Positions 15,968-49,040 of a stretch of DNA of 64,000 nucleotides are shown piece by piece (position 1 is the stretch's first letter; each line of letters begins with the position of its first letter). Made by a program: the position numbers and the translations under genes. The stretch lies in the NCBI RefSeq assembly GCF_023734115.1, contig NZ_AP025737.1:1798001-1862000 (forward strand). Reading direction: 5' to 3'. The stretch is from Herbiconiux sp. L3-i23 (lineage in GTDB: Bacteria > Actinomycetota > Actinomycetes > Actinomycetales > Microbacteriaceae). Under the pieces are notes generated by a model. It saw nothing but the letters and a program-made list of their open reading frames with translations. It did not search any database and had not been told where the DNA came from.

Positions 15968-16023
15968 TGTTGGTGCGCGAGCCCGCTCCGGGAGGACGCG
16001 TCGTTAGGACTCGCGCGCTATGC

Positions 16024-16513
16024 CGAGTCCCGTCATTTCGCGACGGGCCTGGCGGCCCTCCTCAGTGACCCGGTCGCTGAGCCGCCGCGCAGCGGCCCTG
16101 CGATGCGACCAGGTGGGCAGGTTGCGCTGAAGCTCTGGCGCCGGCGCCAAGTCCCGTCATTTCGCGACGGGCCTAGCGGCCCTCCTCAATGACCAGGAAT
16201 CCCCGGTCGCTGAGCCGCCCCGCAGCGGCCCTAGCGACGCGACCAGTCGGCAGATTGCGGCTGAGCTTCGGCGCCGGTGCCGAGTCCCGTCATTTCGCGA
16301 CGGGCCTGGCGGCCCTCCTCAATGACCAGTTCGCTGAGCCGCCGCGAAGCGGCCAGCGACGCGACCAGTGGGCAGGTTGCGCTGAAGCTCCGACCCTGTG
16401 CCGAGTCCCCTCATTTCGCGACGGGCCTGGCGGCCCTCCGGGGTGACCAGGCATTCCCGGTCGTTGAGCCGCCGCGCAGCGGCCCTGCGATGCGACTAGT
16501 GGGCAGGTTGCGG
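16024..16513. repeat. Tandem array of four family B repeats
   Basis: Four head-to-tail units begin near 16030, 16154, 16287 and 16409 (periods 124, 133 and 122). Each holds CGTCATTTCGCGACGGGCCT, GGCGGCCCTCCTCAATGACC, then GGTCGCTGAGCCGCCGCGCA and GGGCAGGTTGCGCTGAAG, with small differences. Neighbouring blocks are mutually inverted. The array fills most of the gap between the PrsW terminator and the HNH gene; no gene is visible. Confidence 0.9.
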
Positions 16514-16563: not shown

Positions 16564-17925
16564 ATGTCGACCCCGCCGCTCCCCCCACTCGTGGCTGAGC
16601 GCTGGGACGACTTCGAAGAGTTCGACGACCTCGACACGACCTCCGACGAGGAGTCCCGGCAGCACCTGAACCGGCTCGCCGACCGGCTCCTCGACACCAA
16701 GCGAGCCGAGGCCGCGGCGGCCGCGGACCGGTACAAGGTCGTGGATCAGTTCCGCCGCGAATGGGAGTCCTCGTCCGCCTCGAAAGCGTCCCTGGCGGGG
16801 ATGCGGGTGCGGGCGATGCGCGCCGAACTCGCCGCCGCCCTCGGCCTGTCCGAACGCACCATCGAATCGTTGGTCGGCCGGGCCCGAGCGTTGAACGACG
16901 ACCTGCCCTCGACCCTGATCGCACTGCAGCGCGGAGAAGTCACGGATCGGCAGGTGCAGGTCATCGTCGACGAAGCCGCCGGACTCACCCCCGAAGAAAC
17001 AGCCGTGTTCGAAGCCGCGATCCTCCCCGAAGCCACCCCCCTGTCCGGCCCGAAGTTCGCCCGGAAAGCCCGCACCCTGCGCGAACACCTCCGCGCCACC
17101 GACCTCACACAACGCCACGCGGCCGCGGCCGAGTTCCGCGACCTGAGCCTTGCCGGGCAACGCGACGGGATGGCCGACCTGCTCCTACACGCCCCCGCAC
17201 AGCACTCGGTCGCGATCTACAACCGGGTCGATCAGATCGCCCGCACCCTCACCGACCCCGACGACACACGGATCCTCGCGCAGAAGCGCGCCGACGTGTT
17301 CATCGCCCTGCTCCTCGACCCGGGCGCGGTGTTCCCCTCCACCGACACCGACGCGGAAAAGGGGCCGCGGCAGGCGACCCTGCACCGGGGTGTCCGGCCG
17401 AACGTGAACGTCACTGTCCCGGCCCTGTCACTCCTCGGCAAATCGGATGAGCCCGCAAACCTCGAAGGCTACGGACCCATCTCGGTTGAGACCGCCCGGG
17501 AGCTGGCCGGGGCGGCGACCGGGTTCCACCGGATCCTCACCCACCCTGAAACCGGGGTGATCCTTTCCTTCGGCCGCGACAGGTACGAAGTCCCGACCGA
17601 GTTGAAGCGGTTCCTGCGGGCGCGGGATGAGACCTGCCGGTTCGTCGGCTGCAACCGGCCCGCCATCGCCACCGACATCGACCACACCGTCGCGTGGGAA
17701 GACGGCGGCGGCACCAACGTCTGGAACCTCGGTTGTCTGTGCAAAGGGCATCACCGGTTGAAACACAACACAGCCTGGGTGGTGAAACAGAAACCCGACG
17801 GCACCGGGGACTACACCTGGACCTCACCCCTCGGCCGCGACTACACCACCAAACCCGCCATCAGAATCGGCGCCGGCGTCATCACCCAAACCGCCTGGCT
17901 CGACAACGACCCACCACCGTTCTAG
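16564..17925 (+). CDS. DUF222/HNH endonuclease domain protein
   Basis: 453 residues. The N-terminal two thirds are the helical DUF222 domain (about 30-330; ELAAALGLSERTIESLV and RQVQVIVDEAAGLTPEE). The C-terminus is an HNH nuclease (about 350-405): CRFVGCNRPAIATDIDH, then GGTNVWNLGCLCKGHHRLKH, with the His and Asn of the fold and Cys pairs for a structural metal. Such proteins occur in many copies in actinobacterial genomes; their role is unsettled, with mobility or DNA repair proposed. ATG 16564 has no obvious ribosome site. It lies directly after a repeat array. Confidence 0.92.
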   Translation: MSTPPLPPLVAERWDDFEEFDDLDTTSDEESRQHLNRLADRLLDTKRAEAAAAADRYKVVDQFRREWESSSASKASLAGMRVRAMRAELAAALGLSERTIESLVGRARALNDDLPSTLIALQRGEVTDRQVQVIVDEAAGLTPEETAVFEAAILPEATPLSGPKFARKARTLREHLRATDLTQRHAAAAEFRDLSLAGQRDGMADLLLHAPAQHSVAIYNRVDQIARTLTDPDDTRILAQKRADVFIALLLDPGAVFPSTDTDAEKGPRQATLHRGVRPNVNVTVPALSLLGKSDEPANLEGYGPISVETARELAGAATGFHRILTHPETGVILSFGRDRYEVPTELKRFLRARDETCRFVGCNRPAIATDIDHTVAWEDGGGTNVWNLGCLCKGHHRLKHNTAWVVKQKPDGTGDYTWTSPLGRDYTTKPAIRIGAGVITQTAWLDNDPPPF

Positions 17926-17953
17926 CCGGAGCGGTGACAGCAGTTCGCGGAAA

Positions 17954-18030
17954 TGGTGGGCCCTGAGGGACTCGAACCCCCGACATCCACGGTGTAAACG
18001 TGGCGCTCTAACCAACTGAGCTAAGAGCCC
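17954..18030 (-). tRNA. tRNA-Val (anticodon UAC)
   Basis: Cloverleaf on the minus strand, 77 nt including an encoded CCA. Acceptor GGGCTCT pairs with AGGGCCC, discriminator A. The D arm is GCTC-AGTTGGTTA-GAGC. The anticodon stem is CCACG/CGTGG with loop TTTACAC (anticodon TAC), and the T arm is GGGGG-TTCGAGT-CCCTC. A TACACT box lies 9 nt upstream (18040-18045). It converges with the HNH gene. Confidence 0.97.
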
Positions 18031-18039
18031 GGAGATCAC

Positions 18040-18045
18040 AGTGTA
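18040..18045 (-). promoter_or_regulatory. -10 box of tRNA-Val
   Basis: TACACT on the minus strand, 9 nt before the tRNA 5' end. Confidence 0.55.
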
Positions 18046-18142
18046 GAGGTCGGGACCCGCGCATCCCGACGGAGCTTTTCGTCCCCGGAGAGTGTCTCGA
18101 CCCGCTGGCGCGAGTGTCGGGGGTGGCACGTTGAATGAGCAC

Positions 18143-18586
18143 ATGGCCGAACCGAGCAGCAACGCACTTGCGGCGCCGTGCTTCTTCTGCCGGGGCGAGC
18201 GCGGCGTGCGCGTCGACGGACGGCTGCGGTGCGCGACCTGCGACTGGAGGGTCGGCGACGTCATCGATCACGAGTTGCCGCCGCCCCGCGTCGACGTCGT
18301 CTACTACCTCCGCTACCGCGACCGGGTGAAGATCGGCACGACGGCGAACCCGCGGCAACGCTTCGCCGCCATCCGGTTCGACAGCCTGCTGGCGTTCGAG
18401 CTCGGTGATCGCCACCGGGAGCACGAGCGTCATCTCGAGTTCGCCGATGCGCGACTCGAACGCAGCGAATGGTTCGACCTCACTCCGACACTCGCCAAGC
18501 ACATCGAGCGACTCCGCAGCGACGGCGACGACCCGTGGCTGGTGCACTTGCGGTGGACGAGCGCCGCGTATGCGGCCCAACTCTGA
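18143..18586 (+). CDS. Zinc-ribbon plus GIY-YIG (T5orf172-like) nuclease-fold protein
   Basis: 147 residues in two parts. Residues 13-33 carry a four-Cys ribbon (C13, C16, C30, C33; CFFC and CATC). Residues about 50-135 match the T5orf172/MUG113 branch of the GIY-YIG fold: VVYYLRYRDRVKIGTTANP with paired Tyr and KIGTT, an Arg in NPRQRF, and the acidic EHERHLEFAD before SEWFDLTPTLAKHI. The key Tyr, Arg and Glu are all present, so activity is possible. ATG 18143 is preferred; TTG 18131 is in frame. It ends one base before the stop of the convergent nuclease-fold gene. Confidence 0.8.
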   Translation: MAEPSSNALAAPCFFCRGERGVRVDGRLRCATCDWRVGDVIDHELPPPRVDVVYYLRYRDRVKIGTTANPRQRFAAIRFDSLLAFELGDRHREHERHLEFADARLERSEWFDLTPTLAKHIERLRSDGDDPWLVHLRWTSAAYAAQL

Positions 18587-18587
18587 C

Positions 18588-19433
18588 TCAGTGGCGCAGG
18601 TAGGCGTCGACCATCAGGTCGCCGCGGATCGCCCGCAGCTCGTCGAACAGACGGTCGAAGACCTTCTTGTTGAAGCCGTGCACCCTGATGTCGTGCGGAC
18701 CGAGCTTCGGGAGGTGCCCGTCGCGGAGGCGCACCACCTCCCAGCCGACGGAGCGCAGCGCCCGGTCCTTGCGTTTGTCGGCCTCCTCCTTCTTGCCCAC
18801 GTGCTCGAGTCCGTGCCGGCCGGTCGAGTCGTACTCGATCGCCACCCGCAGCTCTGGCAGCACGATGTCGGGCCACGCCTCGAGGTGCTCGAAGAAGGGC
18901 TTCACCAACCGCACCGCGTTGAGACCTTGCGTGTAGAGCAGCCGCTCACCGAGCCCGGCTCGCAGCTCGCCCTCGACGGCGGAGGCCGGCTTCGGGGCGC
19001 AGACGCTCGTGAACGGTTGCCCCGCCGGCAGTGACGGCGTCTTCGTGCACACCTGCACCGTCGGCCGCTCCCGCCCGGGGCGCACGACCGCGACCGGCCC
19101 TTCGAGGCCGTTGCGGATGACGGGTCGCGGGTTCGCGAGTTCGAGGCACTCGGGGCACCATGAGGAACGTCGGCGAACCCGCCCCGGCCGGTGCCGCTGC
19201 TCGTCGGGAGTGGCCACGAAGACGTGGCCCGCATCGCACAACCACGTCAGATAGACATCGGCGGCCGGCGGCACCTGGCTGAGCAGGATGCCACGGTTCA
19301 TCTCGGGCCGGTACTGCAGGGCGAGCACCGGGAACGACGCCCACGCCTCCGCGTAGGTGCCCGGCTCGTACGGCACCTCGACGCCGCGCGAGAAGCGACG
19401 CCGCTCCCACCAGAGCTCGATCGGTTCGGGCAT
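18588..19433 (-). CDS. Zinc-ribbon plus PD-(D/E)XK-like (Vsr-type) protein
   Basis: 281 residues. The first half has treble-clef/zinc-ribbon features: WLCDAGHVFVATPDEQRHRP and SSWCPECLELANPRP, as in DUF4379-type zinc ribbons. The second half resembles Vsr/DUF559-like endonucleases: WPDIVLPELRVAIEYDSTG with a candidate PD...EYD metal site, then KKEEADKRKDRALRSVGWEV and RLRDG. This suggests a DNA nuclease for repair or defence; substrate unknown. ATG 19433 has TACCGT 6 nt upstream (19440-19445). It runs tail to tail with the GIY-YIG gene. Confidence 0.8.
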   Translation of the reverse strand: MPEPIELWWERRRFSRGVEVPYEPGTYAEAWASFPVLALQYRPEMNRGILLSQVPPAADVYLTWLCDAGHVFVATPDEQRHRPGRVRRRSSWCPECLELANPRPVIRNGLEGPVAVVRPGRERPTVQVCTKTPSLPAGQPFTSVCAPKPASAVEGELRAGLGERLLYTQGLNAVRLVKPFFEHLEAWPDIVLPELRVAIEYDSTGRHGLEHVGKKEEADKRKDRALRSVGWEVVRLRDGHLPKLGPHDIRVHGFNKKVFDRLFDELRAIRGDLMVDAYLRH

Positions 19434-22295: not shown

Positions 22296-25022
<2,727 letters not shown>

Positions 25023-31494: not shown

Positions 31495-31810
31495 GGAGGC
31501 CGCCCCCACGGCCGTCGCGATGCGACACCACAATGCGAGACTCCCCACTGGTCGCTGAGGAGGCCGCCCGCGGCCGTCGCGATGCGACACCACCTCCCAG
31601 GTGTGCCACACCGGCGAACCGGCAACACCCGTCATCTCGCGACGGCCGTAGACGGCCTCCTCAATGACCAGGAATGCGAGGCTCCCCACTGGTCGCTGAG
31701 GAGGCCGCCCGCGGCCGTCGCGATGCGACACCACCTCCCGGGTGTGCCACACCGGCGAACCGGAAACCCCGTCATTTCGCGACGGCCGTGAACGGCCTCC
31801 TCAATGACCA
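31485..31810. repeat. Family B repeats: one partial and two tandem ~141-bp units
   Basis: A partial copy begins at the end of the methyltransferase gene; full units start at 31550 and 31691 (period 141). Each has GGTCGCTGAGGAGGCCGCCC, GGCCGTCGCGATGCGACACC, then CGTCATTTCGCGACGGCCGT and CGGCCTCCTCAATGACCAGG in inverted order. Together with the hairpin at 31834-31873 this fills much of the gap 31495-32005; in 31874-32005 I see nothing. Confidence 0.88.
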
Positions 31811-31833
31811 GGAATGCAGCGCCCGAGAAAGGG

Positions 31834-48918: not shown

Positions 48919-49040
48919 CGGTCGCTGAGGAGGCCGTTCACGGCCGTCGCGATGCGACGCGAGTCGGTCGGTGTGCTGACAGTGAAGGGGGATGCGCAGT
49001 TCCTCGCATCGCGACGGCCTGGCGGGTCTCCTCAGCGAGC
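48919..49040. repeat. Family B repeat next to the family A block
   Basis: GGTCGCTGAGGAGGCCGTTC, ACGGCCGTCGCGATGCGACG, a ~45-base spacer, then CATCGCGACGGCCTGGCGGG and TCTCCTCAGCGAGC in inverted order. With the block before it, it fills 48498-49051. Confidence 0.88.

What the first reader, a model, noticed from the sequence alone, without database searches (positions are those of the whole stretch)
16564..19433. Three different nuclease folds around a tRNA-Val, each tied to a zinc site
Within 2.9 kb lie an HNH protein with Cys pairs (16564-17925), a four-Cys ribbon fused to a GIY-YIG domain (18143-18586), and a treble-clef plus Vsr-like PD-(D/E)XK protein (18588-19433). The last two run tail to tail, their stops one base apart. 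A four-unit repeat array precedes them and a tRNA gene lies inside; tRNA genes are common integration sites. A small defence or DNA-repair island is possible. No restriction methylase, reverse transcriptase or known defence partner is seen.
Basis: partly seen in the sequence, partly recalled or inferred. Interest (0 to 1): 0.52.

Follow-up and report, generated by a model that had tools for sequence, protein, structure and literature searches.

The report
Paired zinc-finger nuclease genes in Microbacteriaceae
Two small genes for DNA-cutting proteins sit tail to tail in this actinobacterium and tend to be kept or lost together across its family, even where they lie far apart, which hints at a shared job that is not yet known; the neighbouring third nuclease gene and the tRNA gene look like ordinary bystanders.

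Summary
The HNH gene is one of 13 DUF222-HNH genes in this genome and is not linked to the others in relatives. The GIY-YIG gene (T5orf172/MUG113 plus a four-Cys ribbon) and the DUF4379 treble-clef plus Vsr-like PD-(D/E)XK gene do belong together, loosely. In 387 Microbacteriaceae genomes 176 have both, 26 only the Vsr-like, 25 only the GIY-YIG, 160 neither. Of 32 sampled relatives with both, 17 have them side by side (14 convergent, 2 divergent, 1 co-directional) and 14 have them far apart. Zinc and active-site residues are invariant; predicted folds match Vsr/I-Bth0305I and GIY-YIG proteins. Both families are nearly absent from other Actinomycetota. No integrase, att repeat or defence island was seen; tRNA-Val is an old chromosomal neighbour in three genera. 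Both architectures resemble free-standing homing endonucleases, so the best reading is a domesticated, non-obligate pair in one DNA-processing or anti-invader pathway. Which pathway is not shown.

The parts
18143..18586 (+). GIY: zinc ribbon (C13, C16, C30, C33) + T5orf172/MUG113 GIY-YIG nuclease, 147 aa
   Evidence: Pfam; invariant residues; AlphaFold pLDDT 88; fold matches
18588..19433 (-). REA: DUF4379-type treble clef (C66, H70, C93, C96) + Vsr-like PD-(D/E)XK nuclease, 281 aa
   Evidence: Pfam; invariant E154, D189, E200, D202; AlphaFold pLDDT 86; fold matches
18587..18587 (.). single base between the two convergent stop codons; the gap is -12 to 80 bp in the 14 convergent genomes
17954..18030 (-). 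tRNA-Val(TAC): chromosomal neighbour, no sign of an att site
16564..17925 (+). DUF222-HNH protein: bystander, one of 13 in the genome
16021..16512 (.). 133-bp REP-like repeat array upstream of the HNH gene: bystander
22425..25022 (+). aceE: landmark; tRNA-Val lies upstream of aceE here and in G041 and G063

Best explanation
GIY and REA are two single-copy, chromosomal zinc-finger nucleases built like free-standing homing endonucleases (zinc finger + T5orf172 GIY-YIG; DUF4379 treble clef + EDxHD/Vsr-like PD-(D/E)XK) that were domesticated within Microbacteriaceae. They most likely act in one DNA-processing pathway: each zinc finger brings its nuclease to DNA, and cuts or nicks by both limit or resolve incoming or aberrant DNA. 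Shown here: predicted fold, intact sites, adjacency in three orientations, co-retention when unlinked, near-restriction to one family, no multiplication within a genome. Inferred: catalytic activity, cooperation, and the anti-invader or repair role. The partnership is not obligate.
For: Co-occurrence: 32 of 40 carriers among 119 relatives have both; 176 both / 26 / 25 / 160 neither of 387; 49 of 50 REA genomes without a nearby GIY have one elsewhere (8 further such loci were not tested). On a five-marker tree of 74 genomes, independent pairs go the same way about 6 times and the opposite way 0 times (median p 0.03, range 0.008-0.125). Adjacency is found in convergent, divergent and co-directional form (further divergent pairs in G350, G372, G394, G374, positions) while the flanks differ from genus to genus. 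Sites invariant; folds. Homing-type architectures: DUF4379/CapR-like + EDxHD/Vsr (passages of PMC12350094) and zinc finger + T5orf172 (passages of PMC10448857). One copy per genome almost throughout.
Against: Each gene also lives alone: REA only in 13 genomes of genus g103 and 6 of g107, GIY only in g2 (5) and g34 (4). Co-occurrence is largely by lineage (genera: 36 both, 2 and 5 single, 33 neither), so the uncorrected odds ratio of 43 overstates it; p on the tree is only about 0.03. Where linked, joint loss may be one deletion. Distances in the two families do not mirror each other strongly (r 0.30-0.32; partial Mantel p 0.13-0.24). No biochemical or expression evidence.
Confidence: 0.45

Rival explanations
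1. Two functionally unrelated family-specific genes that inherited an ancestral neighbourhood near tRNA-Val/aceE; the co-occurrence is lineage history (both are kept in larger genomes and lost in small ones).
For: Strong lineage structure and genera with only one of the two; tRNA-Val within 7 kb of one or both in 6 of 38 carriers that have the tRNA match, in genera g1, g34 and g56.
Against: Independent pairs about 6 to 0; three different orientations of adjacency; side by side in many unrelated neighbourhoods.
Confidence: 0.32
2. Active selfish free-standing homing endonucleases that still spread by cutting a target near their own gene.
For: Architectures match known homing types; in the two larger data sets the two families follow the species markers less well than the markers follow each other (r 0.08-0.23 against 0.42-0.64); genus monophyly rejected for GIY (p-AU 0.0145).
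Against: One copy per genome; flanks differ between genera rather than marking one conserved target and are mostly ordinary genes; REA has no relative in phage records or viral contigs; genus monophyly not rejected for REA (p 0.245).
Confidence: 0.12
3. A small mobile defence or repair island of three nucleases inserted at tRNA-Val.
For: Three nuclease-fold genes and a tRNA within 2.9 kb; empty tRNA-Val flank in G008.
Against: HNH not linked elsewhere; no att repeat; no defence enrichment among 191 neighbours; in 32 of 38 carriers the tRNA is more than 7 kb away or on another contig.
Confidence: 0.06

Closest known systems
EDxHD/Vsr-type homing endonucleases (I-Bth0305I) and the CapR/DUF4379 + EDxHD/Vsr intron proteins of phages
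   Same: zinc-finger-type domain(s) followed by a C-terminal Vsr-like nuclease; the REA model matches I-Bth0305I at Z 9.2 over 97 residues, rmsd 2.8
   Different: one treble clef instead of three to five domains (passages), a bacterial chromosomal gene, single copy, nearly confined to one family
Vsr mismatch endonuclease
   Same: fold (Foldseek probability 0.99, E 7e-3; Z 8.1 over 105 residues, rmsd 3.2)
   Different: NCBIfam vsr far below its cut-off (13.9 against 97.85 bits); extra treble clef
T5orf172 GIY-YIG homing nucleases; also Odn, a chimeric nuclease of the phage satellite PLE
   Same: zinc finger + T5orf172 nuclease
   Different: a four-Cys ribbon and a stable chromosomal gene. The Odn comparison is recalled, with only the paper's search listing seen
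GIY-YIG proteins of actinophages (Gordonia, Mycobacterium)
   Same: nuclease domain, up to 51% identity over residues 52-127
   Different: 0 of 77 phage records cover 80% of the query

Membership tests
GIY-YIG, T5orf172/MUG113 subfamily (GIY) | Pfam score over the gathering threshold | tested here: met
   MUG113 26.9 (cut-off 22.3) and T5orf172 24.0 (cut-off 20) bits; MUG113 in 39 of 39 relatives at E 0.01
GIY-YIG, T5orf172/MUG113 subfamily (GIY) | conserved GIY/YIG-like strands, Arg and Glu | tested here: met
   Y54 Y55, K63 I64 G65 T66, R73, E93 invariant in 39 of 39; which residues are catalytic is inferred
EDxHD/Vsr-like PD-(D/E)XK (REA) | Vsr-like fold | tested here: met
   predicted model only:
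EDxHD/Vsr-like PD-(D/E)XK (REA) | conserved acidic site | tested here: met
   E154, D189, E200, D202 invariant in 31 of 31 and 40 of 40; their catalytic role is inferred
Vsr mismatch endonuclease proper | NCBIfam TIGR00632 over cut-off | tested here: not met
   13.9 against 97.85 bits
DUF4379 treble clef (REA N-terminal part) | Pfam match and four Cys/His ligands | tested here: met
   31 of 31 members at E 0.01, best 1.6e-13, C66 H70 C93 C96 invariant; the window's own protein alone is below the cut-off
homing endonuclease (behaviour) | cuts gene-less alleles near its own locus and is copied into them | not testable with these tools
   needs biochemistry
anti-phage defence system | matches a known defence model | tested here: not met
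   no PADLOC match for any of the three proteins at E 1; the library dates from 2023
anti-phage defence system | lies in defence islands | tested here: not met
   few scattered PADLOC matches among 191 neighbour proteins at E 1e-10
integrative element at tRNA-Val | direct repeat of the tRNA end | tested here: not met
   one match only in the window at up to 3 mismatches, the tRNA itself
integrative element at tRNA-Val | integrase nearby | tested here: inconclusive
   none among the neighbour families shown, but each list was cut at 25 of 122 families; no integrase among the window proteins scanned near the pair

The most novel reading that the evidence does not exclude
A dedicated two-nuclease system of Microbacteriaceae, made from domesticated homing-endonuclease modules with two different zinc-dependent DNA-reading parts, which restricts or processes invading DNA without any methylase and works in trans, so that its genes need not be neighbours.
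Probability: 0.27. Interest if true: 0.62.

Novelty: new variant of a known kind. Interest (0 to 1): 0.42.

Why it matters
It would add a bacterial, chromosomal pair to homing-type nuclease architectures described mainly from phages and introns, and give a testable case of nuclease domestication in a large environmental and plant-associated family. The many genomes with both, one or neither make the question directly testable by genetics.

Tried and rejected
Three-gene island: rejected (13 DUF222 genes; DUF222 found by BLAST in 2 of 53 pair loci; about 3 would be expected if relatives carry as many, my arithmetic). tRNA as att site: no repeat. Viral origin: for REA none of 65 candidate stretches in viral contigs was a relative and no phage record matched; for GIY 1 weak viral contig and 77 phage records that match the nuclease part only. 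Plasmids: 2 and 8 weak partial matches. Solved structures by sequence: nothing credible. Foldseek against PDB for GIY: no match at E 0.001; the VIA second look gives 1zg2 Z 5.0 and Slx1 Z 4.8, weak. Mirror-tree test: weak. AU test: does not reject genus monophyly for REA, rejects it for GIY, where the window's long branch may mislead. Promoter and terminator scan: nothing. Literature: no paper holds three of GIY-YIG, DUF559, Vsr, treble clef, nor GIY-YIG with Microbacterium, nuclease and co-occurrence; open-access library only. Divergent REA-like rows G033 and G071 were left out of A1, of the distance tests and of the REA and GIY trees; they are kept in the counts.

Full report
What is there. 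The window is from a Microbacteriaceae genome whose nearest relatives are Naasia and Amnibacterium (same-genus handles match named contigs of those genera by length and position). The GIY and REA stop codons face each other with one base between.

The HNH gene is ordinary. It is a DUF222-HNH protein, one of 13 such genes in this genome (14 match rows, two of them adjacent pieces), which fall into duplicated groups of up to 93% identity. DUF222 was found in only 2 of the 53 loci fetched around GIY or REA in other genomes. It is not part of the unit.

GIY and REA belong together, loosely. Among 119 relatives REA is in 33, GIY in 39, both in 32. Of these 32, 14 have them convergent with a gap of -12 to 80 bp, 2 divergent, 1 co-directional, 1 about 3 kb apart on one strand, and 14 unlinked. 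Of 80 named loci with REA, 22 have GIY within 4 kb (21 convergent, 1 divergent); of the other 58, 50 genomes were tested and 49 have GIY elsewhere. In 387 family genomes of at least 95% completeness: 176 both, 26 REA only, 25 GIY only, 160 neither. By genus: 36 both, 2 REA only, 5 GIY only, 33 neither. On a five-protein tree of 74 genomes the traits change 15 and 13 times, and about 6 of 9 independent pairs agree, none disagree, the rest do not differ (median p 0.03, range 0.008-0.125). So there is a real but not obligate association, partly lineage history.

Neighbourhoods. The flanks of the pair differ in nearly every genus. Of 195 nearest neighbours 191 were scanned: among the families shown they are mostly ordinary metabolic, transport and regulatory proteins, with a few scattered, mostly generic PADLOC matches (Pfam lists cut at 25 of 122 families, one PADLOC list at 25 of 38). 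tRNA-Val(TAC) lies within 7 kb of GIY or REA in 6 of the 38 carriers in which it was matched: four species of the window's genus (G000, G001, G002, G008), G041 (335 bp from GIY) and G063 (2.2 kb from REA); in G041, G063 and the window it lies upstream of aceE. This suggests an old home near tRNA-Val and aceE with later dispersal, rather than insertion at a tRNA. In G008 the tRNA and the secreted-protein gene are neighbours without the pair.

Range. In a sample of 336 Actinomycetota genomes REA matched 4 genomes of the family plus one weak case outside, GIY 4, all in the family; one further GIY is in another family of the order (G110). REA has no phage match. GIY's nuclease half resembles actinophage proteins, up to 51%.

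Structure and sites. GIY model pLDDT 88, REA 86. REA matches Vsr (probability 0.99; Z 8.1) and I-Bth0305I (Z 9.2). GIY matches viral GIY-YIG proteins (best E 2.4e-7) and, weakly, 1zg2 and Slx1. The four zinc ligands and the acidic site of REA are invariant in 31 of 31 sequences, the four Cys and the core of GIY in 39 of 39. The window's GIY is the odd one: no N-terminal Cys/His module and a long branch.

Mechanism. Both architectures resemble homing endonucleases: DUF4379/CapR-like domains with EDxHD/Vsr (PMC12350094, passages) and zinc fingers with T5orf172 (PMC10448857, passages). But copy number is one, no common target gene flanks them, and they persist intact, so active homing is unlikely. 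I commit to a domesticated pair in one DNA-processing or anti-invader pathway (0.45). The two families fit the species markers poorly, and genus monophyly is rejected for GIY but not for REA, so some transfer within the family is likely; in the REA tree the window's REA groups with that of G053, a Rathayibacter (72% identity).

Novelty. No paper describing the pair was found in the searches made. The parts are known families; the pairing and its apparently domesticated state are the new element.

Noticed in passing
window 16021-16512; G000 genome: The 133-bp REP-like repeat has 29 exact pattern matches in 11 places; 4 of the 11 lie within about 1 kb of a DUF222-HNH gene, sometimes on both sides, and other DUF222 groups carry their own variant dyads. 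Not seen at the two DUF222 genes of other genera at hand. It could be a REP-like element tied to DUF222-HNH copies; the copies are partly duplicates of one another.
   Followed up: partly
window 31532-31817 and 48923-49037: Further REP-like dyads of the same kind.
   Followed up: no
Gordonia phage records H11-H16: The GIY-like nuclease gene lies at the extreme right end of these phage genomes, about 1 kb from the end.
   Followed up: no
G033, G071 and genera g26, g64, g107, g108: A divergent REA-like subfamily (E about 1e-25 to 1e-35), with GIY in some of these genera and without it in others.
   Followed up: no
genus code g103 (13 genomes): All 13 sampled REA carriers of this genus lack GIY: a natural test of REA acting alone.
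   Followed up: no
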